Below are positions 24,842 to 37,358 of a stretch of DNA of 64,000 nucleotides, in pieces. Origin of the DNA: Mycobacterium barrassiae (lineage in GTDB: Bacteria; Actinomycetota; Actinomycetes; Mycobacteriales; Mycobacteriaceae). The notes under the pieces were generated by a model, which did no database searches, was not told the origin of the DNA, and saw nothing but the letters and a program-made list of their open reading frames with translations. The stretch lies in the NCBI RefSeq assembly GCF_025822765.1, contig NZ_JACKUK010000027.1:1626-65625 (forward strand), written 5' to 3'. How positions within the stretch are numbered: the first letter of the stretch is position 1; every line of letters starts with the position of its first letter. The translations under genes were made by a program, and so were the position numbers.

Positions 24842-24914
24842 GCCCCCGTAGCTCAGGGGATAGAGCGTCTGCCTCCGGAGCAGAAGGCCGCAGGTTCGAA
24901 TCCTGCCGGGGGCA
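24842..24914 (+). tRNA. tRNA-Arg (CCG)
   Basis: A full cloverleaf: acceptor GCCCCCG/CGGGGGC, D arm GCTC...GAGC, anticodon stem TCTGC/GCAGA with loop CTCCGGA giving anticodon CCG, and T arm GCAGG-TTCGAAT-CCTGC. The discriminator is A24914, and CCA follows at 24915-24917, supplied by the integrated element. The 3' half is the target site of the element to its right. A TAGGCT -10 candidate lies at 24802-24807. Confidence 0.96.
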
Positions 24915-24915
24915 C
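24888..24915 (+). repeat. attL of the integrated element
   Basis: A 28-bp sequence covering the T arm and 3' acceptor strand of tRNA-Arg, identical to 37331-37358. The bases on either side of the match differ between the two copies. This defines the ends of a 12.4-kb integrated element whose tyrosine integrase is encoded next to the far copy. Confidence 0.93.
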
Positions 24916-24953
24916 CACGTCTGACCTGGTAAAACAGGGTTTCACAGGGTGAC

Positions 24954-24975
24954 CTACCTATCCGTTACCCATGCC
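24954..24975 (+). promoter_or_regulatory. integrase arm-type site pair, copy 1
   Basis: Two tandem 11-bp units, CTACCTATCCG then TTACCCATGCC, 38 bp inside attL. The same tandem motif is found at 34804 and 37198 in the same orientation. In the excised circle copies 1 and 3 would flank the core, as arm sites do. Confidence 0.65.
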
Positions 24976-25342
24976 TCACCCGTTTGCGGTGCCCGATTCT
25001 GTTTGCTGGCGCTGCGCTGCCGGTCGCGCGCCAGCCGCCCCGCTGCCCTGCTGCCCTGCTGACTGCCCGCCGATCTTGCGGCCAGCATCGGCCCCAATCC
25101 GCGCCAGCGAGCGGCCCCCGAGCCCGCCGACCGGCGACACACCACCGCGCACCCTCCGCCTTGGCGTGGTGGGCAACAATGGCGCATTTCGTGCTGTCTC
25201 GCATTATCTCGCGCATATCGCGAATCATGCTAATGTCGTATTCATAGAGGGCTTCTGCCGCTCGGCCCACCAAGCGAGCGCGCCATTGCCGTTCTGTTCG
25301 GCCACACCACCGAAAAGCTTGGGCCGATGAAAGGCGCTCATT
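24976..25342. other. non-coding left end of element
   Basis: No gene is convincing here. Overlapping Gly/Ala/Gln-rich readings exist on the minus strand but lack ATG/GTG starts with ribosome sites. An inverted repeat TCGCG-CATAT-CGCGA lies at 25209-25223, about 120 bp before the HTH gene, and could be an operator. Confidence 0.4.
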
Positions 25343-25555
25343 GTGGCAATGGCAAAAATGCAGACAAAACCCAAAACCGCCGATTTGATCTCGACCACTG
25401 AAACCGCTAAGCGGCTCGGCGTCACTTCGAACATGGTTCGCACCCTGGTAGCCGATGGCCATCTGATCGGTTACAGGATCGGCAGAGTTGTTCGAATCGA
25501 CGGCGATTCGATCGAATCGTTTCTTGCGAAAAACCGGATGGGCGGACATCAATGA
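25343..25555 (+). CDS. AlpA/excisionase-like HTH protein
   Basis: A 70-aa protein with a winged-helix/MerR-like HTH (about 18-64): TTETAKRLGVTSNMVRTLV, then DGHLIGYRIGRVVRIDGDSI. This HTH_17 type is shared by excisionases (recombination directionality factors) and AlpA-type regulators of integrated elements. Being the first gene after attL favours an excisionase role, but a second such protein is encoded at 28768, so which one acts in excision is undecided. Confidence 0.7.
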   Translation: MAMAKMQTKPKTADLISTTETAKRLGVTSNMVRTLVADGHLIGYRIGRVVRIDGDSIESFLAKNRMGGHQ

Positions 25556-25612
25556 GGGACCGCCGACATCGGTTCACGCTCGCTGGATGCGCGGGAGAAT
25601 AGACTGGCAGAT

Positions 25613-26503
25613 GTGCCAGGAACCGACGCCAACACGGCGAACGACGATCCGAACTACCGAAACCCGAAGTGCTACGTAAACACCTATGGCGGATGCTCGC
25701 GCAAGATCTCTGGTGAGCACTTCATCACCCATAGCATCATCAAGCTGTACAGCTTCGGCGACGACGATGTGACGGTCAAGCACGACAACGGGCGCGGAAT
25801 CCGCGAGTTCGTATCTCCGAAGAAGTTCGTAACCAACATCCTGTGCACAAATCACAACACCGCCCTTCACAACGCCGACGATGCCGCTCTAGAGGTTGCG
25901 AAGTTCCTTTTCAATATCTCCACTACCTACAAGTGCGGAACCGGGCAATGGGGCGATCCCGCCGAAATCACTGTTTCCGGCGACGACTTCCAAGTGTGGG
26001 TGCTGAAACTGCTTCTCAACCACGTGATGGGCAAGGCGTTCCCCCATCAACGAGACGAATCGGTGAATCCGTTCCCGCCGGAATGCGTCGATCTTCTGCT
26101 TGGTCGCGTTATGTGGCCGAACGACCAAGGGCTTTGCGTCGCGGGTGATCCATCCAACAAAGATCTTATGCTGAACGACTTCGGCAGCTTCGAAGACATC
26201 ATTTCGCACCACGTTTCGTTTCAGCCGTTTATCTTCGGCGACCACATCGTGGGTCGCGGCGGCGAGGTCGCAGGCGGAATCGTCAACCTGAATGGCGTGG
26301 GCTTCGGCATGACCGTCGTCAACACCGGGCGAAGCGATGCGGCCACGTTCAACGCACAACCCGGCAACCCGTTGCGGGGTTCTGTTCTACGTCCGAGGTC
26401 GATTGCCTGGAAGCTCGGTGGAGTCGAAAAGCGGATCAACTTCACTTGGTCGGACATCTGGAACCACGAACCGGTGACGTACACGATCAACGTTCGCGGC
26501 TAG
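25613..26503 (+). CDS. uncharacterised protein with Cys/His metal-site motif
   Basis: A 296-aa protein (GTG start) of unknown function. Its N-terminal part has C20, C28, the segment KISGEHFITHSI (E35, H36) and then ILCTNHNTAL (C78, H81, N82). This pattern resembles uncharacterised bacterial proteins with an HNH-like zinc arrangement, so a nuclease-like fold is possible but not shown. No membrane segment. It lies just inside attL after the HTH gene, a usual place for satellite cargo such as anti-phage genes. Confidence 0.65.
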   Translation: MPGTDANTANDDPNYRNPKCYVNTYGGCSRKISGEHFITHSIIKLYSFGDDDVTVKHDNGRGIREFVSPKKFVTNILCTNHNTALHNADDAALEVAKFLFNISTTYKCGTGQWGDPAEITVSGDDFQVWVLKLLLNHVMGKAFPHQRDESVNPFPPECVDLLLGRVMWPNDQGLCVAGDPSNKDLMLNDFGSFEDIISHHVSFQPFIFGDHIVGRGGEVAGGIVNLNGVGFGMTVVNTGRSDAATFNAQPGNPLRGSVLRPRSIAWKLGGVEKRINFTWSDIWNHEPVTYTINVRG

Positions 26504-26633
26504 CCGGGGCGAGTCGGCGTGACGGGGCGATTTTGGCCGTTTCGGGGATTGCGCCACGGGCGCACGGTCTGCCCGTAACGCATCGGGCCGGGTTGCAGCG
26601 GATACGGCGGTTCGGCGGGCCGGTAGGTGTCGC

Positions 26634-26885
26634 TCAATGTGCGATCTTCCGGCCCGCTGTGACACCGACGTAGTACCGACCCTTGCCCCTGCGGGGTTTG
26701 AGTTCCACACCGGCGCGAAAACCGGCGTACTGACCGCCAGGACCAACGCGACCAACGCGCACGTTCTGACGAACCGACCCGCGAACGACGCGCGTCGGCA
26801 GCGACCGTTTGACCCGCGTTGACCGGCTCGCCGTAGAGGCAAACTGACCCTTGCGGTTGCGCTTGTAGGTACGACGTTTCGCCAT
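26634..26885 (-). CDS. small very basic protein (83 aa)
   Basis: An 83-aa protein with about 25 Arg/Lys, starting MAKRRTYKRNRKGQFAS. The R-x-K-G-x-F motif near the N terminus is repeated in the 22-aa peptide encoded immediately upstream. It starts 2 bp after that stop, so translation is probably coupled. Last gene of the leftward capsid block. It might bind nucleic acid or the capsid interior; no homologue is recognised. Confidence 0.6.
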   Translation of the reverse strand: MAKRRTYKRNRKGQFASTASRSTRVKRSLPTRVVRGSVRQNVRVGRVGPGGQYAGFRAGVELKPRRGKGRYYVGVTAGRKIAH

Positions 26886-26887
26886 CG

Positions 26888-26956
26888 TCAGCGCTTCTTG
26901 GTGAATCGGCCAGACTTGCCGCGCGGTCGGCGCTTGCCTTTGCCCTTTTTCGCCAT
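26888..26956 (-). CDS. 22-aa basic miniprotein
   Basis: A short reading frame giving MAKKGKGKRRPRGKSGRFTK plus KR, preceded by GGGAGGAACAACGAC, a strong ribosome-binding site 8 nt from ATG. Over half its residues are Lys/Arg. It shares the KSGRF/RKGQF-type motif with the next gene and lies between two small genes of the capsid block with 2-bp spacing to the 83-aa gene. The ribosome site and context support real translation. Confidence 0.55.
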   Translation of the reverse strand: MAKKGKGKRRPRGKSGRFTKKR

Positions 26957-26996
26957 GTCGTTGTTCCTCCCAGATCGTCAGTTCGCGGTGCCGATG

Positions 26997-27236
26997 TCAG
27001 TCGGCCAGGCGGGGCCGAGGTCGGCCAGCGTGCGGACGCGCTGACGTGACTTCGACCGGTGGCGGGGCCGAGTTGCGCCGATGGTCGCGATTGACCAACG
27101 GCGCAACGTCGTCCCGATTGCGCGCCGGTCCCGGTCCGTACTCCGAAGCGCCGAAACGGTCACCGCGCGATTTCGCGTCGTGCATCGCGTCGATGAGTTC
27201 TTGCGTTGCATTGGCGCGCGCGTTGTCGAAAACCAT
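26997..27236 (-). CDS. small protein downstream of capsid gene (79 aa)
   Basis: A 79-aa hydrophilic protein, N terminus helical and acidic (MVFDNARANATQELIDAMHD), C terminus Pro/Arg-rich and probably disordered. It follows the capsid candidate and its hairpin on the minus strand. Possible roles are a scaffold, a cement or a packaging accessory; none is supported by a recognised motif. Confidence 0.5.
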   Translation of the reverse strand: MVFDNARANATQELIDAMHDAKSRGDRFGASEYGPGPARNRDDVAPLVNRDHRRNSAPPPVEVTSARPHAGRPRPRLAD

Positions 27237-27298
27237 TGCAGTTACCTACTTTCAGCGATTCGCAGGCCGCGTCCGTTGCGCCGGATCGTCCGTTAAGC

Positions 27299-27339
27299 CG
27301 TGGCGGGCCGTACGTCGTCGTCACAGACGGCCCGCCACG
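27299..27339 (-). terminator. hairpin after capsid gene
   Basis: A perfect 13-bp stem (27299-27311 with 27327-27339) around a 15-nt loop, 4 bp past the capsid stop codon. There is no U tract on the minus strand, so it is more likely an attenuator or 3' mRNA stabiliser that sets capsid expression above that of the small genes downstream. Confidence 0.6.
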
Positions 27340-27343
27340 GGGG

Positions 27344-28531
27344 TTACAGGGCGATGGTCGGCGCGGTGTAATCGGTGCCGCTGCCGATCTGGATCGCCAC
27401 GGCTGCGCCGCGCTGGCGCACGCCGACGCCGAACGACCGAATGTATTGGCTGTCCTGAATCGGGTAACCGGTGTTGCCGGGAGCGGCCAGCAAGCCGCGA
27501 TAGCTTTCGACCGGGTGCTCACGAACGCCAATCACGTTGTTCTGACTGTTCGGCCCGCCAGTCGCCACTACGGCGATGTAGCCAGCGGGGATGAACTCGG
27601 TTTCGACCAGCCACGCGGGGCCGTAGGAACCAAGGCATTCGATTTCGTGGAACTCACCCGAAATCGCTTCACCGACGATGTTGTCGGGAGTGAGGTACGC
27701 CGGAGCTTTCTTCGACGGGATGTACGAGTGTTTCGCAATCGGCCCGCCACTGCGCGATTCTTCACCTTGGCGGAACGTCTGGATATTCTCGCTTTCGAGC
27801 TGCGACGCCAGAATGAGAATCTGCGAACCCGCTTCCCGACCGTAGCCCTTGGCGCGGATCGTTCGCACGGCGTCTTCGATATCGCCGGAATCGACCTGTG
27901 TTGCACCGGACTTCCAGTAGTGCGTGGTGGTCGCCGGGTCGAACTCGTGACCGAGGTAGCTGGGGACGTATTGACCATCGGCGTTCCACAGACCACGGCA
28001 CGTATAGCCCTCGTTGTTCGTCTTGGGCGACGGGTCAAACAGCCGTTTCAGGATCGTGCCTGTGACCAGACGATTGTCCGAATGCATGATGCCGTTGATG
28101 GACGCGTACACCTGTTCGGCGGTCATGGCCCGAAGTGCGCGCCACGTGAACGACGACCGCAAGCCGAAATCGCCGAAGTCGTAGCCGAGGATCAACGCGT
28201 CTGCGGGCAAACCGGCAGCGTTGGTTACGCCGTATTCGGTGAGTTGCTCGAAGCTCGGAGACGAAATGTTCTGTGGCACAGCCTCACCGGGCAGCACGGT
28301 TCGGAACGACAACAGGTCAGAAATGCCAGTGCGGTGCTTATTCCACGTGTCGAACGCTCCGACCAGATCGGCCCAAATCTCGTTTAGGTCAACGCCGTCT
28401 GCGGTGTGCGTCGCGAGCGCGTCGCCAGCGGCGATGATGCCCATCTGGCCGGATTGCTCACCGCCGAAGATCGGCAGAACCGGCACGCCGTCAATCATTG
28501 GGAAATCGGCGAAATCGAGAATCGCGGTCAT
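27344..28531 (-). CDS. putative HK97-like major capsid protein
   Basis: A 395-aa soluble protein, start preceded by GAGGT. No membrane segments or enzyme motifs. Its size, Gly/Ala-rich mixed composition and C-terminal part with DSQYIRSFGVGVRQRGAAV are like major capsid proteins of siphophages and of phiRv-type elements. There is no adjacent prohead protease or portal gene, and no obvious scaffold-like N-terminal helix, so a self-assembling shell without protease maturation would be expected. An encapsulin-like compartment is the main alternative. Confidence 0.5.
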   Translation of the reverse strand: MTAILDFADFPMIDGVPVLPIFGGEQSGQMGIIAAGDALATHTADGVDLNEIWADLVGAFDTWNKHRTGISDLLSFRTVLPGEAVPQNISSPSFEQLTEYGVTNAAGLPADALILGYDFGDFGLRSSFTWRALRAMTAEQVYASINGIMHSDNRLVTGTILKRLFDPSPKTNNEGYTCRGLWNADGQYVPSYLGHEFDPATTTHYWKSGATQVDSGDIEDAVRTIRAKGYGREAGSQILILASQLESENIQTFRQGEESRSGGPIAKHSYIPSKKAPAYLTPDNIVGEAISGEFHEIECLGSYGPAWLVETEFIPAGYIAVVATGGPNSQNNVIGVREHPVESYRGLLAAPGNTGYPIQDSQYIRSFGVGVRQRGAAVAIQIGSGTDYTAPTIAL

Positions 28532-28657
28532 TATCAGAACCTCACATTTTCAGGCGCGTTTATCGCGCGTGGTGGCTCGATTTTACTCGGCGGAATGGCG
28601 CGAGCGGGGCCGCGTATAGACGCCACGCCGACAATTCACGCGCCACGCGCGCCATTC

Positions 28658-28686
28658 GTGACATAGCGTCCACAATGCACTATTCT
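28658..28686 (+). promoter_or_regulatory. promoter of the rightward early block
   Basis: GTGACA (28658-28663), 17-nt spacer and TATTCT (28681-28686), 81 bp before the HTH gene at 28768. It lies in the divergent gap between the capsid block and the replication block, the natural control switch of the element. Confidence 0.5.
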
Positions 28687-28767
28687 GGACCCTGAAACGG
28701 ACACCTGAGCGCGCCAGGCTAGCGCGCGGGCCGCGAGGCCATCGGTAATGAAAGGTGCCCGTTTCTC

Positions 28768-28974
28768 ATGTCTCAGGATCGCGTGCGGCTCGATGCAGTG
28801 GGCGACATGCTCACCACAGCGCAGGCCGCGAAACTCCTTGGTGTAAGCCAGAATTCGATACGACGGTACGCCCGTGACGGGTTGATCCCGGCTCACAAAG
28901 TCGGCAAGCGGCTGCTTCGATTCCGTCGCGACGACTTGATTCGTCTCATTTCAAAATCGGACAAAAGCGCGTGA
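28768..28974 (+). CDS. AlpA-like HTH regulator
   Basis: A 68-aa protein with an HTH_17 domain (about 16-62): LTTAQAAKLLGVSQNSIRRY, then ARDGLIPAHKVGKRLLRFRR. It is the first gene of the rightward replication block and is divergent from the capsid gene, so it is a good candidate for the element's activator. It is a paralogue-type relative of the 25343 protein. Its stop overlaps the next start (GTGA). Confidence 0.7.
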   Translation: MSQDRVRLDAVGDMLTTAQAAKLLGVSQNSIRRYARDGLIPAHKVGKRLLRFRRDDLIRLISKSDKSA

Positions 28975-29126
28975 GCCGCGGAATCGAAAAGCGCCGAAAT
29001 TCAGTGACCGTCGATCCGGTCAAACTCTCCGTTTATGACCTGTTGTTTTCGTTGGTCACACGGTCTGGCGTGGAAATCGCGCTAAGTGTCGGTGAAGTGA
29101 AAATAGGTGGAAAGGGTAAATCATGA
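28971..29126 (+). CDS. 51-aa protein in coupled operon
   Basis: A 51-aa frame from GTG (MSRGIEKRRNSVTVDP...GGKGKS). It overlaps the previous stop by 4 bp (GTGA) and the next start by 4 bp (ATGA). A continuous chain of such overlaps on both sides strongly suggests a real gene. No motif is recognised. Confidence 0.6.
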   Translation: MSRGIEKRRNSVTVDPVKLSVYDLLFSLVTRSGVEIALSVGEVKIGGKGKS

Positions 29127-29365
29127 CAATTGACTTTGGCAGACGAATCATAGGTCCGCGCGTCGCAGCGTTCCGCAACGACCGATCCCGCTGGAACTTG
29201 GCGAACCTTTTCGCCGGTGAACGTCGCCGTTTGGTCGAACTCGATGCCGAGATCGACCGGCGCGCTTACGCATTCGCGCCCGCCGACCGCAACCTACAGG
29301 AACGCGCACGGCGCGCGATGACACAAGCCGCAGAAATCGCACTCACGGGAAGCTACGCGAAATGA
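29123..29365 (+). CDS. 80-aa helical protein of unknown function
   Basis: An 80-aa, Arg/Ala-rich, probably all-helical protein (RRRLVELDAEIDRRAYAFAP). It overlaps its neighbours by 4 bp on each side, so it belongs to the operon 28768-30188. No family recognised. Confidence 0.6.
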   Translation: MTIDFGRRIIGPRVAAFRNDRSRWNLANLFAGERRRLVELDAEIDRRAYAFAPADRNLQERARRAMTQAAEIALTGSYAK

Positions 29366-30009
29366 ACCACGACAACAGACGACCGATCAGCGCAGCGACG
29401 CGCGCAGACATCACCGGTCGATTTTCGACACTGACTGACTCAAGCCTGAGCGGCGAAACCGATGATCCCGCGCTGGCTGCTATGGCCGAACAGATCCTGT
29501 CTGGCCTGTTGCACGCCGATGGTTTGGCCGCACAGCACTACGAACGGAAAGCGCCGGGCTTCCTAGCCGCGCATCAGTCGGTTTCGTTCCTGCCCGAGCT
29601 GGCGCGGATCGCCGCAAACGCCGTCGCAGCGGATCGCCAGATGATCGACGGCGACGACGGCGGGCCGTGGGTGATCTTCACGACGCGACCGGGCGAACGC
29701 TACGCCCTGGCGACTCCCGGCATTCTCGACGCGGCGCTGGACACGGTTGCCGGTGACATCGCGTGCGATCTTCGCCGCAGTTGGGGCGGAAACGGTTACT
29801 GCGTGTCCGACATGAATATGTCGAAACGGCACAAACTGCCACCCACCGATAAAAGCGGAAAGATGCTGAATCGTCCGTTTACGTTTCTGTTCGCACATGG
29901 CGAATATCTCGTTTTGTCGAGAATCTGCATCGACTGCTGGATCGATTTCGTCAAACACTACGAAATCAAAGATGTACGAATTCAGAATCCTTGGGAAACG
30001 CTCGGATGA
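29362..30009 (+). CDS. 215-aa protein of unknown function
   Basis: A soluble 215-aa protein overlapping its upstream and downstream neighbours by 4 bp. N-terminal half helical, C-terminal part with aromatic-rich segments (PFTFLFAHGEYLVLSRICID). No motif was recognised. Its place just before the primase suggests an early function such as replication or helper-phage interference, which is only positional inference. Confidence 0.55.
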   Translation: MNHDNRRPISAATRADITGRFSTLTDSSLSGETDDPALAAMAEQILSGLLHADGLAAQHYERKAPGFLAAHQSVSFLPELARIAANAVAADRQMIDGDDGGPWVIFTTRPGERYALATPGILDAALDTVAGDIACDLRRSWGGNGYCVSDMNMSKRHKLPPTDKSGKMLNRPFTFLFAHGEYLVLSRICIDCWIDFVKHYEIKDVRIQNPWETLG

Positions 30010-30188
30010 CCGAAGCGCAACACCCTTCACGGGTCGGTGACCGTGTTCTAAATACGCTCTACCACAGTGTATTTCAGCCAGAACTGACGAACCCCGACCG
30101 GGGAAACGAGGAAAGCCGGTCGGGGTTCGATCACGGTGTTCGGTCACCGCAGAACAAGCACTTTCGAGAATACCGCGTCGGTCCCTGA
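30006..30188 (+). CDS. possible 60-aa protein overlapping a hairpin
   Basis: A 60-aa frame (MTEAQHPSRVGDRVLNTLYH...) starting with an ATGA overlap with the previous gene. It runs straight through a 13-bp stem structure and nested inverted repeats, so the region may instead be non-coding. Kept at low confidence because of the overlap. Confidence 0.3.
   Translation: MTEAQHPSRVGDRVLNTLYHSVFQPELTNPDRGNEESRSGFDHGVRSPQNKHFREYRVGP
30035..30149. repeat. nested inverted repeats upstream of primase gene
   Basis: Outer arms CGGTGACCG (30035-30043) and CGGTCACCG (30141-30149) enclose an inner perfect 13-bp stem (30089-30101 with 30116-30128, GAACCCCGACCGG) and a 14-nt purine-rich loop. Candidate replication origin, structured RNA or terminator. 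Confidence 0.6.
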
Positions 30189-30225
30189 ATTTCACAGCCC
30201 CGTAGGTAAATTGAGCAAAGAATTA

Positions 30226-30257
30226 GCGGGCCGATCATTCCCACAAGATCGGCCCGC
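30226..30257 (+). terminator. hairpin just before primase gene
   Basis: Perfect 11-bp stem GCGGGCCGATC / GATCGGCCCGC (30226-30236, 30247-30257) with a 10-nt loop, 28 bp before the primase start. No U tract follows, so an attenuator or Rho-independent-like pause is possible, as is an origin element. Confidence 0.5.
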
Positions 30258-30285
30258 CGCAGCCACCCCGCAACAAAGGTAACTG

Positions 30286-32823
30286 ATGACCATTACACCA
30301 CAGGTCAATGACAAACTCGACAGACCTGCGCGCGTTTTGCAATTTCCGCCCATTGGTCGAATCGATCCGCGCGACATCATCGCGACCGGTCCGATTCCGC
30401 TCAGCGCCGACGATCTCGCGTTCGACTGCGAGACGGCGCAACGCTGGGCGACGCGTCGCGCGGACCTGGCGGCAACGCTGGCCGCGCTGCCGATCTTCGG
30501 CGGCAGCATGCCCGCCGACCGCGAGCACCAGGGCGACGCGGTGACCGCGATCCCCGACGTGGCCGGACAGGACACGCCAACCGCAGCGCTGGCGTATGCG
30601 AACGCGGGTATGTACCTGATACCGACCAGCGCCGATAACATCAAGAACCCCGGTTCGATTCTCGGCAAAGGCTGGCAGGACAAGACAAGTCGAAACCGGG
30701 CGCAGATCCGAAAGTGGTTCTCCGACCATCCCGGCGCGGGCATCGCGTGGGACGTTGGCCGGTCCGGCGCAATCGCCTTCGATCTCGATTGTGACGACAA
30801 GCCCGCCGACATGAGCGACGCCGTTTGGACGGCGCTGCAAACCGGCGCGATACACACAACCCGCCAAGGCGGATCGGCGCGGGCACACTACGTTTTCGCG
30901 TGCAAGCCAGACGAGTTCGGCAACGGCGCGGGCGCATTCGGGCGATGGGGCGAAGTCCGATGCAGCAACGGCGTGATCGTTCTCGCGCCGACACCGCACC
31001 CCGACGCCGACACGAAAGGCGGTTCCTACCGCTGGCGCAAGTCCGGCGAGTTGCCGCCGTTGCCCGATGTACTGCGCGGTCTGCTGTCCAGTGCTGCGCA
31101 AAACGACGATCCCAAAACGCCGGCCGAACTGACCAAGTTTCTCGGCGCGCACGTCCGCGACGATCAACCGCGCGGATTGCAAGGCCATCTCACAAGCTTC
31201 GCCGCAGCGGTCGAACGCGGAGAGTCTCGCCACGACTCGATGACCAAAATCATGGCGTGGGCTTTCCGCGAATCGCTCATCGGGCGATTCGGTGCCCAAA
31301 CCGCCTATGACGCTCTCAAACTCGCGTTCTACCGCGCCAAACCGGAGACCAGAGGAACCGGAGAGTTCGACCGGATCGCTCGGTGGGCGGCAGCGCAAGC
31401 CGAAATCGCCGATCCCAACGAAACCCGGCAGCGCGTCAGTCGCGACACCTACGCCGATCCGTTCGAACCGATTCGATCGGATCTGGCCGATTTCTGGTCG
31501 TCGTCCCCGCAACTGTCGGACTTGCGCCAGTTCGCGCAAGCGCGGCTGGTCGGCCCGATGTCCATGTTGGGTAACTCGCTGGCGCGCGTCGTTGCGTCGA
31601 TCCCGCCGAACGTCGTCTTGCCGCCCATCGTCGGTGGCGTCGCCAGCCTGAATCTGTTCGTCGCGCTGGTCGGCAAAAGCGGTGAAAGCAAGTCGGCGTC
31701 AATGCGCGCCAGCGCCGATTGGTTGCGGATCGAACCGAACTACCAACCGTCCAAACCCGGCAGCGGCGAAGGGTTGGCGAAATGCTTCGCCTACAAGTCG
31801 AAACTTGCGGGTGGTAGCGGATGGGTACAAGTCGGCAAGCAATGGTCAGTGCTGGCGCAGATCCCCGAAGTGGACACTTTGGCCGCGACCGGCAACCGTA
31901 GCGGTTCGACCATCATGAGCACCCTTCGCGAAGGCTGGTCGGGCGAACGTCTCGGCCAGGACTACGCGGGCGATGACAAGCGGATCATTCTGCAAGACAA
32001 CCGATACCGGCTGTGTTTGAGTCTCGGTGTTCAGCCGTTGCGGGCCGCGCCGATCTTCGATGATGCGGACGGCGGCACGCCGCAGCGGTTCGTGTGGTTT
32101 TCGGCGGTCGATCACGACTTGCCCGATGTCGAACCCGACCCGCCGCCAATGCTCGATTTGGGCCGTTGGGAAGACGGCACTTCGAGCGCTTCCGGCACCA
32201 ACTCGGCGGCGCTGGTCGATCCGGATATCGACCGTAACGCCAATCTTGCGGTTCCCGCCGACCCGGCAGAGTTCGACATTCTGACGGTTCCCACCATTGC
32301 CGAGCGCGAGATCAGAGACGTTCAGCGCGCGATCCGGCGCGGTCTCGGCGGCGTCGATCCGCTCGACGGGCATCGCTTGCTTGTTCAGTTGAAAGTGGCT
32401 GCCGCGCTCATGGCGCTGGAAGGCCGACGCCACGAGATCACCGAATCGGATTGGCAGCGCGCCGCCGTCGTGATGGCAATGTCAAACATCACGCGCAAGG
32501 CGGTGCGCGATGAACTGGCGTCGAAGTCCCGAGAGCTGAACCTCGCGCGTGGTCGCGCCGAAGGCGAACGCGAGATCATCAAGTCCGACGTGATCGCCGA
32601 AGACCGGCAACGGGTGTTCCGCATGTCCGAACGGATTCGGGAAGCGCTCAAGACCGACGACGGCCAAACGTTGTCGAAGTTGCGCAAGGCTCTTGCCGGT
32701 GGAAATCGCAACCGCGATGTTTTCGACAAAGCCGTTGTGTTCGCTGCCGACAACGGGATGGTTCGACGCGAAGACTTCACGGCGCGCAACGGCCAAGAGA
32801 GCGCGCGGCTATGGCAGATCTGA
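30286..32823 (+). CDS. primase-polymerase / SF3-like helicase replication protein
   Basis: An 845-aa replication protein. Residues about 98-260 are a bifunctional primase-polymerase domain: LAYANAGMYLIPTS, the metal-binding DLDCD (166-170) and the RAHYVFA histidine (H201). Residues about 425-760 are a DUF3987-type/SF3-like ATPase with Walker A GKSGESKS (463-470). Such fusions replicate phages, plasmids and satellites. It is the largest gene of the element and follows large inverted repeats that could be its origin. AAAGG lies 7-11 nt before the ATG. Confidence 0.8.
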   Translation: MTITPQVNDKLDRPARVLQFPPIGRIDPRDIIATGPIPLSADDLAFDCETAQRWATRRADLAATLAALPIFGGSMPADREHQGDAVTAIPDVAGQDTPTAALAYANAGMYLIPTSADNIKNPGSILGKGWQDKTSRNRAQIRKWFSDHPGAGIAWDVGRSGAIAFDLDCDDKPADMSDAVWTALQTGAIHTTRQGGSARAHYVFACKPDEFGNGAGAFGRWGEVRCSNGVIVLAPTPHPDADTKGGSYRWRKSGELPPLPDVLRGLLSSAAQNDDPKTPAELTKFLGAHVRDDQPRGLQGHLTSFAAAVERGESRHDSMTKIMAWAFRESLIGRFGAQTAYDALKLAFYRAKPETRGTGEFDRIARWAAAQAEIADPNETRQRVSRDTYADPFEPIRSDLADFWSSSPQLSDLRQFAQARLVGPMSMLGNSLARVVASIPPNVVLPPIVGGVASLNLFVALVGKSGESKSASMRASADWLRIEPNYQPSKPGSGEGLAKCFAYKSKLAGGSGWVQVGKQWSVLAQIPEVDTLAATGNRSGSTIMSTLREGWSGERLGQDYAGDDKRIILQDNRYRLCLSLGVQPLRAAPIFDDADGGTPQRFVWFSAVDHDLPDVEPDPPPMLDLGRWEDGTSSASGTNSAALVDPDIDRNANLAVPADPAEFDILTVPTIAEREIRDVQRAIRRGLGGVDPLDGHRLLVQLKVAAALMALEGRRHEITESDWQRAAVVMAMSNITRKAVRDELASKSRELNLARGRAEGEREIIKSDVIAEDRQRVFRMSERIREALKTDDGQTLSKLRKALAGGNRNRDVFDKAVVFAADNGMVRREDFTARNGQESARLWQI

Positions 32824-32864
32824 GCGCATCTAGCAAACATATTATGCGTCCAGCAGCGGTGAGG

Positions 32865-33030
32865 GTCCGAAGGGGGGAACAGGGGAACAGTTCCACCCTT
32901 CGCGCGAAAAACTGTCGCCGACCGATTTCCAAAACCCCAGGTCAGACAGATTCATTCATCGCCTATATGGAGCATTGGCACGGGGTTTCACAGTCGAAGG
33001 GGGGAACGTTCCCCCGTTCCACGCTTCGCG
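32865..33030. repeat. two GAAGGGGGGAAC repeats with palindromic arms
   Basis: Copy 1 (32865-32903) and copy 2 (32993-33030) both begin with GAAGGGGGGAAC and continue to GTTCC and a CTTCGCG end, so each can fold on itself. Copy 2 contains the palindrome GGGGAACGTTCCCC. They lie between the replication gene and the terminase-like gene, where a packaging or origin site would fit. 32824-33094 has no convincing gene. Confidence 0.6.
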
Positions 33031-33094
33031 GCCAGACCGGCGCAGATGTGGCGCGGAGCAAGCAAACAATGACGGGCACGGAAAGGGCCAGGCA

Positions 33095-33589
33095 ATGGAG
33101 CTGATCACGACGGAAATCGAACCAATGGACGAAACCGGACCGGCACGATTTCGGAGATCGCCAAGCACGCTGAATGCTCCAAAGGCGCCGAAAGGGATGG
33201 AACCGTGCACAGCCGAACTGTGCACGAATCTGCCTGCGACGCAAGGTGGTCTGTGTCCTGGGCATCGGCGAACGCTGATGCTGACGGCCAAGATCTCTGA
33301 CGCGGTTCGGGAGTTCCTGAACTCGGCGAACATTCCCCCGAACACTGAAATCGGATTGATCGAAAATCAGGTGATGGAAGCGGGCGAATATCTGGCGCAA
33401 GGCTTGGGGTTACTCGCAACCACACAGTTTGACGAACAACTGATTTGGGATTCTTTGCCGATTCACATCGAACCCGAAAAGTGGCAAGGGCGATGGCGCG
33501 TTGAGTTCGTATGGAAGATCGCCGATAGCGGCGAAACCGAAGACATCGGAGAAATCAAAAATGATGAGATCGGAGTGAAAGCGGGATGA
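33095..33589 (+). CDS. 164-aa zinc-knuckle protein of unknown function
   Basis: Start chosen at ATG 33095, with GAAAGGG upstream; a longer frame would read through the repeat region. The 164-aa protein has a C-x4-C-x10-C-x2-H zinc-knuckle pattern (C38, C43, C54, H57; GGLCPGHRR) similar to that of the terminase candidate two genes on. The C-terminal part is acidic. The stop overlaps the next start by 4 bp. DNA or protein contact in packaging is plausible but unproven. Confidence 0.6.
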   Translation: MELITTEIEPMDETGPARFRRSPSTLNAPKAPKGMEPCTAELCTNLPATQGGLCPGHRRTLMLTAKISDAVREFLNSANIPPNTEIGLIENQVMEAGEYLAQGLGLLATTQFDEQLIWDSLPIHIEPEKWQGRWRVEFVWKIADSGETEDIGEIKNDEIGVKAG

Positions 33590-33720
33590 GTAAGAAAGCG
33601 TTCAAGTCGAATCCGACGAATCCCAAGGTTCGGGCAAGTTCGAACATGATTCGTAAGGGAAAAATGCAGATCGGTAAACCACAGGGCGGCAAACCACAAA
33701 TCGGCAAACCGACCAAATAG
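33586..33720 (+). CDS. 44-aa basic peptide with IGKP repeats
   Basis: A 44-aa frame (MSKKAFKSNPTNPKV...) overlapping the previous stop by 4 bp. The C terminus carries three QIGKP/QGGKP/QIGKP repeats and the peptide is rich in Lys. Overlap and repeat pattern support translation; function unknown. Confidence 0.55.
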   Translation: MSKKAFKSNPTNPKVRASSNMIRKGKMQIGKPQGGKPQIGKPTK

Positions 33721-33761
33721 AAAAATCGACGAAACTACCGGAAACGCTGAAAGGCAAGCAC

Positions 33762-34640
33762 ATGACTGACTACGACGACGGCCAGCCCAACGGCCAGGAC
33801 GACAACGACAACGCCGAGCACCCTTCGAACTCTGCACCCATCGAACCCGTCCAGCGGCACCAACGGAAATGCACCGCGCACAAGACAAACGGGCAGCCCT
33901 GCGAACGCTGGGCCATCGCTGGTGGGCGAGTGTGCCCATCGCACGGTGGACGCGCGGCGCAGGTTCGGCGCAAAGCGCGGCAACGGCTCGAAGAAGCAAC
34001 CGACCGAATGGCGAAAGAACTACTCCGGATGGCCGTCGATCCCGGCGTTTCCGACGCCGTGAAACTGCGCGCGATCACGGAAGCGCTCGACCGTGGAAAT
34101 CTGTCGGCAAAGACTGAAATCGAAGTCAGCGCAAAACCTTTCGAGCAGATCGCAGAATCGGCGGCAATGACGCTCGAAATCACGTCGCGCGCTGAGTTCC
34201 GCCGAGCGCAGGGAACCGAAGACGACGACACCGACGCCGACGATCCGCTGGCGGGTTTGCACGCGGCAGACGTTGCGAAAGTGACCGCTGACGAATCCCG
34301 GCGACGTGATGCGATCCGCTATGACGCAAGTGATTCCAACGTGATCGATGCTGAAACGGTCGAAATCGACGGCGATGTCATCGATTACGGCAATACGATC
34401 ACACCAGGCGACTACGAACGCGAACCCACCCGCCCTGGCGGGTTGGCGATTGACCCGCTGACGGGACGGCCACACTTCGATCCGGCAGACTTCGACGGCC
34501 CGATGACGATGGAACAGGCGAACGACGTGGTTGCCGAGATGAACCGGCGCAACGCCGAGCGCATGCACCGTGAGCGGGCCGACGCGGGCCGCGCCGTCGT
34601 TCACCCGGTACGCCGAGCGCTGCCACGCGGCAGGTCGTGA
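33762..34640 (+). CDS. putative small terminase / zinc-knuckle HGG protein
   Basis: A 292-aa protein. Residues 37-63 are a zinc knuckle (C37, C47, C58, H61) ending in CPSHGGRAAQVRRKA, a pattern common in actinophage proteins annotated as small terminase or terminase-associated. It is followed by a helical segment (KLRAITEALDRGNLSAKTEI) typical of the same family and a long acidic C-terminal tail. A small terminase would direct packaging by a helper's large terminase. No large terminase gene follows. Confidence 0.5.
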   Translation: MTDYDDGQPNGQDDNDNAEHPSNSAPIEPVQRHQRKCTAHKTNGQPCERWAIAGGRVCPSHGGRAAQVRRKARQRLEEATDRMAKELLRMAVDPGVSDAVKLRAITEALDRGNLSAKTEIEVSAKPFEQIAESAAMTLEITSRAEFRRAQGTEDDDTDADDPLAGLHAADVAKVTADESRRRDAIRYDASDSNVIDAETVEIDGDVIDYGNTITPGDYEREPTRPGGLAIDPLTGRPHFDPADFDGPMTMEQANDVVAEMNRRNAERMHRERADAGRAVVHPVRRALPRGRS

Positions 34641-34803
34641 CGGCAGCACGACGGCAGACTGTCACAGTATGCGGATTGACCGGAATACGTTGCAGCACAG
34701 TGCAATTCGGTCCTTTTGTGGCCAGGTCAACCGACAACCGCAGGTAAGCAACCTGCCGGGGTTAACGCGCTGACCAGCGAAAACAACCGAATCGACGGGT
34801 CAT
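34641..34803. other. short gap with small hairpin
   Basis: Between the terminase candidate and the 327-aa gene, which converge. Contains a 6-bp hairpin GCAGGT-AAGCA-ACCTGC (34740-34756), a weak terminator candidate. No gene seen. Confidence 0.4.
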
Positions 34804-34825
34804 CTACCTATCCGCTACCCATGCC
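34804..34825 (+). promoter_or_regulatory. integrase arm-type site pair, internal copy 2
   Basis: CTACCTATCCG then CTACCCATGCC in tandem, differing from copy 1 at one base; the match to copy 1 extends to 32 bp with three mismatches. It ends exactly at the stop codon of the 327-aa gene. It is about 2.5 kb from attR, an unusual place for an arm site. Confidence 0.6.
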
Positions 34826-35809
34826 TCAATCCGGCGGATACAGCGCGGCCCACGTTTCGACGGATGGTTGCAAGCGGTCGGGATACAGGATCGGTCGATC
34901 TGTGTTCGTCGCGTGGTTCTGGGCTTGCGCTTCGAACAGGGCTACCGCGCATTCAGCCATCGTCACAGCGATGTTGACGGACTCAACGATCATTCGGGCC
35001 ATTTGAATCTCGCCGTTCGGCATGTAGTCGAGCGGCCATTTCAGACCATGCACAATCGCCGAATTGAGGTTGTAGAACCGCGCGGCAACATCTTCGAATC
35101 CGTAAGCGTTGCCGTACAGGTCGGATGGATCATGTTGCGGCGGATGCTGATCAAGCCACTTCGCCGCAGCGGCAACGACAAAGCCGCCGTCAGACACGTT
35201 GGCTTTCGGGGTTTGTTGCATACCCTGTTTCAGCATCTCCACGCGCTCATCGAACAGCCGAACATGTTCGAGGAACTCTCGATACGCGACTGACTGTTTT
35301 GTGTCGGGGTATTGATCGAACCGCTTACGCGTCGATCTGTGAAACGCACGTTGCGCGTTCAGCTCGGACGCGGTGAAACGCACACTGAGACTTCGCCTCA
35401 TAGCTCGGTCGGGATTCGATAACAGCCAGATCGTCGTTGCCGCCGATTCGGCTGCCATGCGGGTCAGCGTGAGGTTTGACGACGTGTGGTGATCGCCAGA
35501 ACCTTTGCGGTCGCCGGAGTCGTCTCTACCGTCGATCAGCTCGGACACTGCGGTGAGGGAATCGATGGCGTTGATAATCGGGAACAGTGCGGTTCCGCTC
35601 ACCATGTCGCCCGCGTAGTCGGTCATGAAACCGTCGTCATCGTTGGCAAGGCTGCTGCCGGGATCGACCAGTTGGCGCTTTACCTGCATCGCCCAAGGTT
35701 TCAGTTCCGCGCCGCGCTTCGCCTTCGCGTTTGTGCGTTGCAGTATCTCGACTCTCTGTGCTCGGTTCGCCACTGCCGCGAACAAGTCCGCCAGTGTCGG
35801 TTGGTTCAC
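34826..35809 (-). CDS. 327-aa protein coupled to integrase, cargo candidate
   Basis: A soluble, mostly helical 327-aa protein of unknown function. The segment NLNSAIVHGLKWPLDYM resembles the S-x2-H motif of HEPN/DUF5677-like helical proteins, though this is weak. Its start overlaps the integrase stop by 4 bp (ATGA), so it is expressed with the integrase from the lysogenic state. Genes in this position in satellites and prophages are often anti-phage or immunity genes. It ends at an internal arm-site copy. Confidence 0.6.
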   Translation of the reverse strand: MNQPTLADLFAAVANRAQRVEILQRTNAKAKRGAELKPWAMQVKRQLVDPGSSLANDDDGFMTDYAGDMVSGTALFPIINAIDSLTAVSELIDGRDDSGDRKGSGDHHTSSNLTLTRMAAESAATTIWLLSNPDRAMRRSLSVRFTASELNAQRAFHRSTRKRFDQYPDTKQSVAYREFLEHVRLFDERVEMLKQGMQQTPKANVSDGGFVVAAAAKWLDQHPPQHDPSDLYGNAYGFEDVAARFYNLNSAIVHGLKWPLDYMPNGEIQMARMIVESVNIAVTMAECAVALFEAQAQNHATNTDRPILYPDRLQPSVETWAALYPPD

Positions 35810-37053
35810 AGTGCGTCGGCCAGGGCGGGTGGGTCGGTGTGCTCGGACGCTGCGGCCAGTTCGGCAAGTGCGTTGGCCGACAGGTTCGCCGCCACGATGG
35901 CATCGCGCCCGTCTTGGGAATGCTGGTAACGCAACGCGGCGTCAACCGTCTTGTGCCCGAGTCGCGCCATGTTTTCGGTCAACGTCGCAACCTGTGCGTT
36001 CTTCGAACCGGCGAACCGGCGCAAATCGTGGGCCGACAGATCTTCGCGTCCGACCGATGCGGCAGCTTTCTTGAACACGTCCTTATTAAACACACGGTCG
36101 TTCAGATGGCACCCGCCACGCGCCGGTTTGAACAACAGCGCTTCGGGGTCAGAACCGACGAACCGCGCAAGGTGGTCTTTCACGTCGTCGCGAATGTGGG
36201 GCGGAATCGTCACGGCGCGCTCATCTTCATTGCCCTTGGTGCTGTCGATCCGGCAACGGCCCGCTTTCGCCGCACTATCGGTTTCGTCGGCGTTGGGGTC
36301 CGCGCGATGTGTGACCGCGCGGGTAACCGTCAGCACTTCGCACTTACGGTCAAAGTCCTTACGGCGCAGCTCGGACACTTCGCCGAAGCGCAGACCGCAC
36401 CAGCCGGCCAGCAACACAAGCGCTTTGAATCGTGCGTTGTTTTCGTCGGCACCGAGCTTGTCAGCGATGGCATGCAGTTCGACGGTCATCGCGATCTTGA
36501 CGCGCTTTTTCGTCTTCGGATTCATCGCGCCGCGCACATCGCAGGGATTGCGGTCTAACAGACCGTCGCTGACGGCGGTATTGCAGATCATGTTGAGGAT
36601 CGAATACGCGTGACCGTTGCGCGTCGCTTTGGTCTTGTCCAAACCGGCGAACCACGCGCGCACGGCGGTCGTGGTCAGATCTCGCACGGGCAGATATCCC
36701 AAACCAGGTTCGATCAGCTGCGACCACTTCGCTTCATATTCGATGCGCGTGCGCGGTTTGAGGATGCGCGCGTCGATCACCTTTTTGCCGTACTCGGACA
36801 GTCTGACCGTTTCGGCTTTCTGTTCCTGCGCGCGCTGTGACGGCGGTTTCCACGGTTCGTCAGTTCCGGCGCGCCGTTCGATGTTGTCCTTTTCGCGTGC
36901 AAGCCAGCGTTCGGCGTTCATCTTGGTTGTGAAGATTTCCGGCGCGTAGTGCCGTCGCCCATCTGGGCCGACGAACGACGCTTGGAAACTTGGCCGCTTG
37001 GTCCGTTGTTTCTTGATGCTCCCCCATGCGCGGTGTCCCACTTTCGCGGCCAT
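35806..37053 (-). CDS. int: tyrosine recombinase/integrase
   Basis: Site-specific recombinase that inserts the element at tRNA-Arg. The 415-aa product from ATG 37053 (GGGAGA upstream) has an N-terminal arm-binding domain (about 20-80), a SAM-like core-binding domain (about 85-175) and the catalytic domain with R222 (CGLRFGEVSELR), H342-x2-R345 (AHDLRRF), H367 (LGHKTV) and nucleophile Y376 (ALRYQH). It lies next to attR, facing inward. Confidence 0.93.
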   Translation of the reverse strand: MAAKVGHRAWGSIKKQRTKRPSFQASFVGPDGRRHYAPEIFTTKMNAERWLAREKDNIERRAGTDEPWKPPSQRAQEQKAETVRLSEYGKKVIDARILKPRTRIEYEAKWSQLIEPGLGYLPVRDLTTTAVRAWFAGLDKTKATRNGHAYSILNMICNTAVSDGLLDRNPCDVRGAMNPKTKKRVKIAMTVELHAIADKLGADENNARFKALVLLAGWCGLRFGEVSELRRKDFDRKCEVLTVTRAVTHRADPNADETDSAAKAGRCRIDSTKGNEDERAVTIPPHIRDDVKDHLARFVGSDPEALLFKPARGGCHLNDRVFNKDVFKKAAASVGREDLSAHDLRRFAGSKNAQVATLTENMARLGHKTVDAALRYQHSQDGRDAIVAANLSANALAELAAASEHTDPPALADAL

Positions 37054-37197
37054 TTCAGATTCTCCCGATCTCGTGTTGGTGCGCCCGTCGCGAAATCGTC
37101 GGAACCGATTTCTGAGTGAGAGCAAACCAGATTTTCCCTGTGGTTTCCGCTAGGAATCCTGCGGCCCTTGGGCGCTGACCTGCTGCGTTGCTGCCAT

Positions 37198-37219
37198 CTA
37201 CCCACCAGCTACCCATGCA
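37198..37219 (+). promoter_or_regulatory. integrase arm-type site pair, copy 3
   Basis: CTACCCACCAG then CTACCCATGCA in tandem, 112 bp inside attR and upstream of the integrase start. Same orientation and 11-bp period as copies 1 and 2. 37054-37375 contains no gene; it holds this site, the integrase upstream region and attR. Confidence 0.65.
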
Positions 37220-37330
37220 CAACAGCATAACGGTTGCGAAGTGCGCGAAATGCGCGAACCACCGAACGGGTCAAACCTGTTGCAGGACAAGGAAAGTGCT
37301 GGTCAGACTAGATGTTTGCTGGAAATGCGT

Positions 37331-37358
37331 CCGCAGGTTCGAATCCTGCCGGGGGCAC
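37331..37358 (+). repeat. attR of the integrated element
   Basis: A 28-bp copy of the tRNA-Arg 3' end (T arm and acceptor strand) identical to 24888-24915. To its right is the original chromosomal flank, reading TCTTTCC, without a CCA triplet in frame with the tRNA end. It is a displaced tRNA 3' fragment, not a functional tRNA. Confidence 0.93.

What the first reader, a model, noticed from the sequence alone, without database searches (positions are those of the whole stretch)
24888..37358. A 12.4-kb element in tRNA-Arg that looks like a capsid-making phage satellite
The element has an integrase, two excisionase/AlpA-like HTH proteins, a primase-helicase, a capsid-protein candidate and a small-terminase candidate, but no recognisable portal, large terminase, protease, tail or lysis gene. 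That set is too complete in early functions for a decayed prophage and too poor in structural genes for a phage. It matches the logic of capsid-forming satellites (cf-PICIs) and phiRv1/phiRv2: make own shell, package with own small terminase, borrow portal, large terminase and tail. Intact overlapping operons and perfect att repeats suggest it is functional.
Basis: partly seen in the sequence, partly recalled or inferred. Interest (0 to 1): 0.85.

Follow-up and report, generated by a model that had tools for sequence, protein, structure and literature searches.

The report
Phage satellite with its own shell
A small DNA parasite in a mycobacterial chromosome carries its own virus-shell gene and a gene that picks which DNA is packed, but no other virus-building part that could be found, so it probably borrows those from an infecting phage; many relatives of similar build exist in actinobacteria.

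Summary
The element is real: perfect 28-bp repeats at 24888-24915 (3' end of tRNA-Arg) and 37331-37358; in one relative the two flanks lie only ~0.4 kb apart. The 395-aa protein is a Patience-like HK97-fold major capsid protein (PDB 8giu, 6e-69; model pLDDT 89). The 292-aa protein belongs to a small-terminase family (24 of 37 members match a TerS PHROG). No portal, large terminase, protease, scaffold, minor capsid or tail gene was found. Prophage decay is unlikely: 0 of 121 genomic capsid loci (overlapping collections; 96 distinct capsids) show a Patience-type partner gene, against up to 78 of 82 viral loci (on which the HMMs were grown). Satellite capsids lie on one side of a fully supported branch, after relabelling two contigs. 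Of 27 tRNA-bounded members 25 span 12.0-14.1 kb. So it is a satellite of a widespread actinobacterial lineage, but not a cf-PICI as described: those bring portal, protease, connectors and both terminases and borrow only tails. Integrase-plus-capsid 'candidate PICIs' are already reported in Mycobacterium, so the kind is known; the MCP+TerS-only layout and single lineage look new. Particles, helper and capsid size are inferred.

The parts
24842..24917 (+). tRNA-Arg (CCG), integration site
   Evidence: ARAGORN
24888..24915 (+). attL, 28-bp core
   Evidence: perfect direct repeat
37331..37358 (+). attR, 28-bp core
   Evidence: perfect direct repeat; flanks 398 bp apart in G022
25349..25555 (+). 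HTH_17 / excisionase-type protein 1 (68 aa from ATG)
   Evidence: PF12728 7.6e-10; TIGR01764 excise 1.5e-9
25613..26503 (+). 296-aa cargo protein of unknown function
   Evidence: no Pfam/PHROG/NCBIfam/PADLOC hit; homologues in 2 other of 121 loci, L048 and L093, which look like the same contig
26634..26885 (-). 83-aa basic protein, capsid-gene partner
   Evidence: 20 of 121 loci (window included) have a homologue; in all 20 it lies on the capsid strand within 0.5 kb downstream
27344..28531 (-). major capsid protein, Patience-like HK97 fold (395 aa)
   Evidence: phrog_3990 1.1e-87; PDB 8giu 6.2e-69; model pLDDT 89.4; Foldseek 8saj 9e-32, 8giu 1.4e-31
28768..28974 (+). HTH_17 / excisionase-type protein 2, divergent from the capsid gene
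   Evidence: PF12728 2.1e-16; best PHROG excisionase/regulator 1.2e-9, one of 35 HTH-type hits that include a TerS family at 1.8e-5
28971..29126 (+). 51-aa ORF, overlapping its neighbours by 4 bp
   Evidence: not scanned against families
29123..29365 (+). 80-aa ORF, overlapping its neighbours by 4 bp
   Evidence: not scanned against families
29362..30009 (+). 215-aa protein with four conserved Cys, recurring in the family
   Evidence: iterated HMM, not converged, reaches 56 of 121 loci; C189 and C192 invariant, C135 and C147 at least 90% in 24 sequences; model pLDDT 75, no PDB match at E <= 0.001
30286..32823 (+). primase-polymerase / helicase-like protein (845 aa)
   Evidence: PF09250 1.3e-19, PF13148 2.1e-7
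33095..33589 (+). small protein, unknown (164 aa from ATG; 103 aa from the caller's start 33278)
   Evidence: homologues in 4 other of 121 loci
33762..34640 (+). small terminase (TerS) family protein, 292 aa
   Evidence: family A2: 24/37 phrog_10899, 16/37 phrog_2538; PDB TerS 6w7t 1.5e-5, 7joq 7.8e-5; family HMM hits the TerS gene upstream of TerL in 12 viral loci
34826..35809 (-). 327-aa cargo protein of unknown function, overlapping the integrase gene by 4 bp
   Evidence: no PHROG/NCBIfam/PADLOC hit; 1 other of 121 loci
35806..37053 (-). tyrosine integrase (415 aa from ATG; 439 aa from TTG 37125)
   Evidence: PF00589 8.7e-10, phrog_1 7.9e-46

Best explanation
A tRNA-Arg-integrated phage satellite of an old actinobacterial lineage that brings two virion-level genes: its own major capsid protein and its own small terminase. 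Shown: integration at a tRNA; intact integrase, excisionase-like, primase, MCP and TerS genes; absence of every other head, packaging and tail gene that was searched for; recurrence of this layout across many species. Inferred steps: (1) a helper phage with a Patience-like head infects or is induced; (2) the excisionase-like proteins and integrase excise the element and the Prim-Pol protein replicates it; (3) the element's MCP assembles with the helper's portal, scaffold and protease, making shells sized for about 13 kb; (4) its TerS steers the helper's large terminase to satellite DNA; (5) helper connectors, tails and lysis finish and release the particle.
For: MCP identity. TerS identity. 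No partner genes: 0 of 121 genomic loci hit phage TerL, portal, protease, MuF, scaffold, minor-capsid or major-tail HMMs; the same HMMs hit 37, 45, 9, 61, 74, 78 and 62 of 82 viral loci. PHROG scan of 10 window proteins: MCP, weak TerS, primase, integrase, HTH only, plus unknown-function families. The same library finds TerL, portal, protease, scaffold and MCP in another element of this genome. One lineage: satellite versus phage MCPs need 1 change on the tree, SH-aLRT 100 (3 changes before two contigs were relabelled). Size: 25 tRNA-bounded members of 11,999-14,081 bp, median 12,962. Layout -MCP | HTH, ~200-aa protein, primase, TerS, (serine recombinase), integrase recurs; tblastn finds TerS in all 25 of these. 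Near-full-length MCP copies in the genus: 59 of 64 places have no internal stop (counted).
Against: No excision, induction, particle or helper was observed. The element has no megablast match in 50,697 phage records. The window's TerS alone matches a TerS PHROG only weakly (0.0067) and an unknown-function family better (5.2e-10); the call rests on the family. MCP shows no large satellite-specific change that would explain a smaller shell (only 1-3-residue indels). In this subclade the putative His metal site of Patience is lost. TerS was not detected in 19 of 121 loci, some cut by contig ends. The partner-gene HMMs were grown on the viral loci they are compared with and come from one phage type; my protease HMM is poor (9 of 82).
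Confidence: 0.75

Rival explanations
1. Decayed prophage of a Patience-like phage that has lost most late genes.
For: MCP is homologous to those of such phages at 36-39% identity, and TerS remotely so. Some copies in the genus are broken or short: 5 of 64 near-full-length places have stops and many further matches are fragments; two of 27 bounded elements are only 8.9 and 5.4 kb.
Against: 0 of 121 loci keep a Patience-type partner gene. The MCPs group apart from the phages. Size and gene order recur at many tRNA sites.
Confidence: 0.05
2. A true capsid-forming PICI (cf-PICI) that makes a complete head and borrows only a tail.
For: Own MCP and TerS, integrase, primase, size of about 12 kb.
Against: No portal, TerL, protease or connector found. 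Apart from MCP, primase and integrase the largest genes called are 327, 296 and 292 (TerS) aa; the first two are small for TerL or portal and rare in the family. Another element of the same genome does carry TerL, portal, protease, scaffold and MCP.
Confidence: 0.04
3. The capsid protein is a weapon, not a shell: it co-assembles with helper MCP and spoils helper heads (interference or defence), while the element travels in helper or mixed heads through its TerS.
For: Only the MCP is kept, without minor capsid or a detectable gp4-type accessory protein; a small basic partner lies downstream in 20 loci; the MCP gene is divergent from the replication-packaging run.
Against: A full-length, well conserved MCP (mean column identity 56% in 21 satellites) and a narrow size band argue for packaging in a shell; 36-39% identity makes co-assembly with known phage MCPs uncertain.
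Confidence: 0.12

Closest known systems
Candidate PICIs of Mycobacterium (PMC10654092; passages, section 9; figure not visible)
   Same: Region with integrase and phage MCP, some at tRNA genes with a tyrosine integrase; this element would meet that paper's working definition.
   Different: That class was defined simply as integrase + MCP and pools many capsid types, phiRv1/phiRv2 included; no sub-class with only MCP and TerS is named in the text I read.
cf-PICIs (as summarised in PMC10690885, passages; EcCI2 capsid 9gyi appears)
   Same: Satellite-encoded MCP and TerS; integrase and primase here.
   Different: cf-PICIs also carry portal, protease, connectors, TerL and HNH; none was found here. 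The shells are distant (Foldseek about 5e-7, 10-11% identity).
Compact Mycobacterium prophage-like elements such as phiBN44_1 and phiMCAN_1 (PMC3986857, passages)
   Same: About 11 kb, integrase, primase, MCP. Another, phiBN42_1 (8.4 kb), sits in a tRNA-Arg with a repeat that is the reverse complement of 19 nt of this att core.
   Different: phiBN44_1 and phiMCAN_1 are listed with portal and terminase (phiBN44_1 also scaffold), like element L248 of this genome.
Patience-like phages (Patience, Adjutor: PMC10635136, passages; Predator, Oaker)
   Same: Same MCP family and fold; Predator/Oaker TerS share the zinc-finger region.
   Different: 64-71-kb phages with T=7 heads, minor capsid protein, accessory gp4, portal, TerL, protease, scaffold and tail; none of these found in the satellite.
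P4 and SaPIs (PMC10690885, passages); PLE (abstract of PMC10945586 in the listing)
   Same: Some SaPIs carry their own TerS to redirect packaging.
   Different: They remodel the helper's capsid with scaffold-type proteins; this element supplies the MCP itself.

Membership tests
Phage satellite (general) | Integrative element with integrase and replication genes but without a full virion gene set | tested here: met
Phage satellite (general) | Mobilised by a helper phage | not testable with these tools
   needs induction or infection
Mycobacterium candidate PICI (PMC10654092) | Integrase and major capsid protein in one region, not a prophage | tested here: met
cf-PICI | Own major capsid protein | tested here: met
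cf-PICI | Own portal protein | tested here: not met
   no PHROG/Pfam hit in the proteins scanned and no large called gene left unassigned; 0 of 121 relatives with a Predator-type portal HMM
cf-PICI | Own large terminase | tested here: not met
cf-PICI | Own head maturation protease and connectors | tested here: not met
   no hit in 10 window proteins; small ORFs of 51-80 aa were not scanned and my protease HMM is weak (9 of 82 viral loci)
cf-PICI | Own small terminase | tested here: met
   family evidence
Patience-like MCP family | Sequence and fold of the 8giu/8saj capsid | tested here: met
Patience-like MCP family | Putative metal site (His198, His200, Glu223, His224 of Patience) | tested here: not met
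   window has T202, H204, A227, K228; 46 of 78 satellites keep all three His
Tailed-phage prophage | Portal, TerL, scaffold, tail genes | tested here: not met

The most novel reading that the evidence does not exclude
A single-lineage, widespread actinobacterial group of satellites that hijacks phage heads by swapping the shell protein itself: it supplies MCP and TerS, and the helper supplies portal, scaffold, protease, motor and tail. Volume scaling from the 63-nm T=7 Patience/Adjutor heads suggests a T=3-size shell for 12-14 kb (13.6 kb at the density of a 48.5-kb T=7 phage, a size that I recall for lambda; 18-20 kb at Patience/Adjutor density). This would be a third packaging strategy, between capsid remodelling (P4, SaPI, PLE) and complete-head making (cf-PICI).
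Probability: 0.45. Interest if true: 0.8.

Novelty: new variant of a known kind. Interest (0 to 1): 0.63.

Why it matters
Satellites are usually sorted into those that steal and reshape the helper's capsid and those that make their whole head. A large lineage that keeps only the shell protein and the packaging selector would show that heads can be hijacked by replacing one part, and would make testable what sets capsid size: MCP, scaffold or portal. The shell has a cryo-EM template (Patience), family members lie in environmental genera such as Gordonia and Williamsia, and candidate helpers (Patience-like phages of M. smegmatis) are in collections.

Tried and rejected
Tried without result. Megablast of the element against phage records: none. 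MCP in plasmids: none. Homology of the 83-aa partner to Predator gp13/Oaker gp9: rejected (hhalign probability 0.1%). Predator gp4/Oaker gp3 accessory protein: no tblastn hit in 41 loci (a short query, so weak evidence). Fold of the 215-aa protein: no PDB match. Defence families in four window proteins: none. A link between loss of the MCP metal site and presence of the 83-aa gene: raw counts look linked (14 of 15 tree rows with it have Lys; 31 of 71 overall), but the tree-aware sign test gives p = 1. Satellite-specific domain change in MCP: only 1-3-residue indels. Five relatives first used for the empty site gave no right-flank match (one of them, L251, is itself occupied by a family member); only G022 was informative.

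Rows dropped and limits of counts. Two bounded elements, L039 (repeats 8.8 kb apart) and L065 (5.3 kb apart), were left out of the size statistics and gene clustering (25 of 27 used). In the tree, MCPs under 300 aa and exact duplicates were removed (158 left of 203 loci), then copies at least 80% identical (104 left). Viral loci L153 and L154 were relabelled as satellites because they lack scaffold and minor capsid and carry satellite TerS; the tree needed 3 changes before and 1 after. L155 lacks scaffold, minor capsid and TerS hits and was not a separate tree row. The 121 genomic loci are 40 genus loci, 80 genome-contig loci and the window; the collections overlap and several loci are cut by contig ends. 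Only the best 80 of 115 genome-contig hits and 80 of 215 viral hits were returned, so prophages with related MCPs could lie among those not seen. The phage-partner HMMs were grown on the same viral loci that serve as their positive set. PHROG, Pfam and PADLOC scans of 149 non-core proteins list only 25 of 120, 55 and 152 families. I then scanned 20 large proteins singly: none matched TerL or portal; one (L042, 495 aa) had weak lipase, head-decoration and tail hits.
Full report
Observation. The element is present at the stated coordinates. A tRNA-Arg(CCG) is at 24842-24917, and its 3' end is repeated perfectly over 28 bp at 24888-24915 and 37331-37358. GC is lower inside than to the left. In one genus relative (G022) the tRNA-side flank (82% identical) and the right flank (73% identical) are 398 bp apart, so the 12.4 kb is most likely an insertion; five other relatives gave no right-flank match. 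The two cargo-like proteins (296 and 327 aa) have no PHROG, NCBIfam or PADLOC match.

Capsid. The 395-aa protein has no Pfam match but is PHROG 3990 'major head protein' at 1.1e-87 over 13-392. tblastn finds it in 153 actinophage records, 152 over at least 80% of its length; the 40 listed cover 94-99% at 35.6-39.3% identity, most annotated as major head or capsid protein and some as hypothetical. phmmer against the PDB finds Patience 8giu (6.2e-69) and Adjutor 8saj (1.7e-63) and nothing else at E <= 0.001. An AlphaFold2 model from 102 sequences has pLDDT 89.4. Foldseek ranks 8saj and 8giu first (9e-32, 1.4e-31; TM about 0.66-0.74), with HK97 and the cf-PICI EcCI2 shell further down.

Small terminase. 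The window protein alone is weak (phrog_3678, unknown function, 5.2e-10; TerS phrog_10899 0.0067). Its family of 37 is clearer: all 37 match phrog_3678, 24 match phrog_10899 (best 6.6e-11) and 16 phrog_2538, the last two both TerS. The family profile hits solved TerS chains 6w7t (1.5e-5) and 7joq (7.8e-5). In 12 viral loci it hits the same ORF as the Predator-type TerS HMM, with TerL downstream (best 5.8e-13 over profile positions 79-241 of 252). The invariant residues C37, C47, C58 and H61 lie in the region that aligns with Predator/Oaker TerS (hhalign probability 96%, E 1e-9, 44 columns).

What is missing. A PHROG scan of 10 window proteins shows no portal, TerL, protease, scaffold or tail protein; ORFs of 51-80 aa were not scanned. 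The largest called genes besides MCP, primase and integrase are 327, 296 and 292 aa. HMMs grown from Predator genes hit 0 of 121 genomic capsid loci. The same HMMs hit, of 82 viral loci, TerL 37, portal 45, MuF 61, scaffold 74, minor capsid 78 and major tail 62; they were grown on those loci, so these numbers are generous. The protease HMM hit only 9 of 82 and says little. The PHROG library does see such genes in this genome: element L248 gives TerL 1.4e-85, portal 3.3e-107, protease 1.9e-11, scaffold 9e-6 and MCP 6e-40.

A lineage, not a remnant. In the genus, 74 of 297 genomes (own included, a sample of the genus) have a related capsid gene, and 59 of 64 places that cover at least 320 residues have no internal stop, while further matches are fragments (counted). 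Of 41 loci examined, 27 have tRNA-anchored repeats; 25 span 11,999-14,081 bp (median 12,962) and two are 8.9 and 5.4 kb. The tRNAs are Arg, Met, Val, Leu, Lys and Gly. L055 sits in a tRNA-Arg(CCG) too, and L251 in G007 in a tRNA that matches the window's tRNA flank. Gene clusters in the 25 bounded members: MCP 25, integrase 24, TerS 20 (25 of 25 by tblastn), a serine-recombinase-like protein 20 (absent from the window; named by eye, not by HMM), one primase cluster 18, and variable cargo. Named hosts include Mycobacterium, Gordonia, Williamsia, Nocardia, Rhodococcus, Tsukamurella, Dietzia, Hoyosella, Nocardioides and Micromonospora. On a 104-sequence ML tree the satellite capsids lie on one side of a branch with SH-aLRT 100 once two IMG/VR contigs (L153, L154), which lack scaffold and minor capsid and carry satellite TerS, are counted as satellites; before that, three changes were needed. 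One side of a branch is a clade only if the root lies on the other side.

Partner genes. A homologue of the 83-aa basic protein is found in 20 of 121 loci, always on the capsid strand and within 0.5 kb downstream. It is not Predator gp13. A 215-aa protein with four conserved cysteines reaches 56 of 121 loci in an iterated search that had not converged; in 45 of the 56 it is divergent from the capsid gene. Its model (pLDDT 75) has no PDB match. A role as a zinc-binding activator is a guess.

Mechanism. Best fit: a helper with a Patience-like head provides portal, scaffold, protease, TerL, connectors and tail, and the satellite provides shell protein and packaging selector. Patience and Adjutor are T=7, 63 nm inside, with 70.5 and 64.5 kb (PMC10635136, passages). 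Scaling volume, a T=3 shell would hold 13.6 kb at the density of a 48.5-kb T=7 phage (lambda's size, recalled) and 18-20 kb at Patience/Adjutor density; T=4 would hold 21 or 28-30 kb. The 12-14-kb band therefore suggests T=3 or a loosely filled T=4. This is inference, and MCP itself shows no obvious size-switching change.

Compared with the known. PMC10654092 (section 9) already reports Mycobacterium regions with integrase and MCP as candidate PICIs, so the kind is known. cf-PICIs are described as bringing the whole head and packaging set and depending on the helper only for tails (PMC10690885, passages); this element fails that test. PMC3986857 (passages) lists elements of 8-13 kb, two of them given with portal and terminase at about 11 kb, and one (phiBN42_1) in a tRNA-Arg with the same core. 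Literature searches listed no title or abstract describing a satellite with only MCP and TerS. The library is partial, I read passages only apart from that section 9, and its figure could not be seen, so this layout may have been drawn there.

Verdict. Observation confirmed; interpretation partly right. It is a new variant of capsid-encoding satellite, with strong sequence evidence for what it carries and good evidence for what it lacks, and no direct evidence yet for particles or helper.

Noticed in passing
L248 (G000:C35:94500-114400) and L249 (G000:C23:656000-675900): Two further elements of the same genome, with 27-bp and 48-bp repeats about 10.5 kb apart at tRNA-Asn and tRNA-Ala. L248 carries TerL, portal, protease, scaffold, PF05065 capsid and primase (no TerS or HNH identified) and looks cf-PICI-like; L249 has a similar gene order by ORF calling but was not scanned.
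   Followed up: partly
L250 (G000:C41:64000-78682): Third PF05065 capsid locus of the genome, with a portal protein (phrog_104 1.9e-91), running towards the contig end; not classified.
   Followed up: no
window MCP residues 202, 204, 228: The putative metal site of Patience capsids is switched in a coordinated way: 46 of 78 satellites have His-His-His, 30 of 78 have x-His-Lys (window T-H-K), 2 have other sets; at least 8 changes on the tree.
   Followed up: partly
C-terminus of TerS, window 33762-34640: Satellite TerS proteins end in recurring tails, '..LPPGRS'-like in 22 and '..SPHKRYxRP'-like in 18 of 102, unlike the seven phage TerS ends printed; possibly TerL- or procapsid-binding.
   Followed up: partly
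window 29362-30009: Recurring 215-aa protein with a C..C....CxxC pattern and no known relative; candidate regulator.
   Followed up: partly
window 32993-33022: Near-perfect palindrome (21-nt arms, 90% complementary) between the primase gene and the next gene; possible operator or origin.
   Followed up: no
20 of 25 bounded relatives, e.g. L049:13088-13744: A serine-recombinase-like gene between TerS and the tyrosine integrase, absent from the window element; a second recombinase in a satellite is unexplained.
   Followed up: no
L153, L154, L155 (IMG/VR contigs): Contigs in a virus collection whose capsid gene belongs to this satellite lineage and which lack scaffold and minor capsid in the stretch seen; public virus sets include satellites.
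   Followed up: partly
L042:13550-15034: A 495-aa protein after the capsid and 83-aa partner with weak lipase, head-decoration and tail hits.
   Followed up: no
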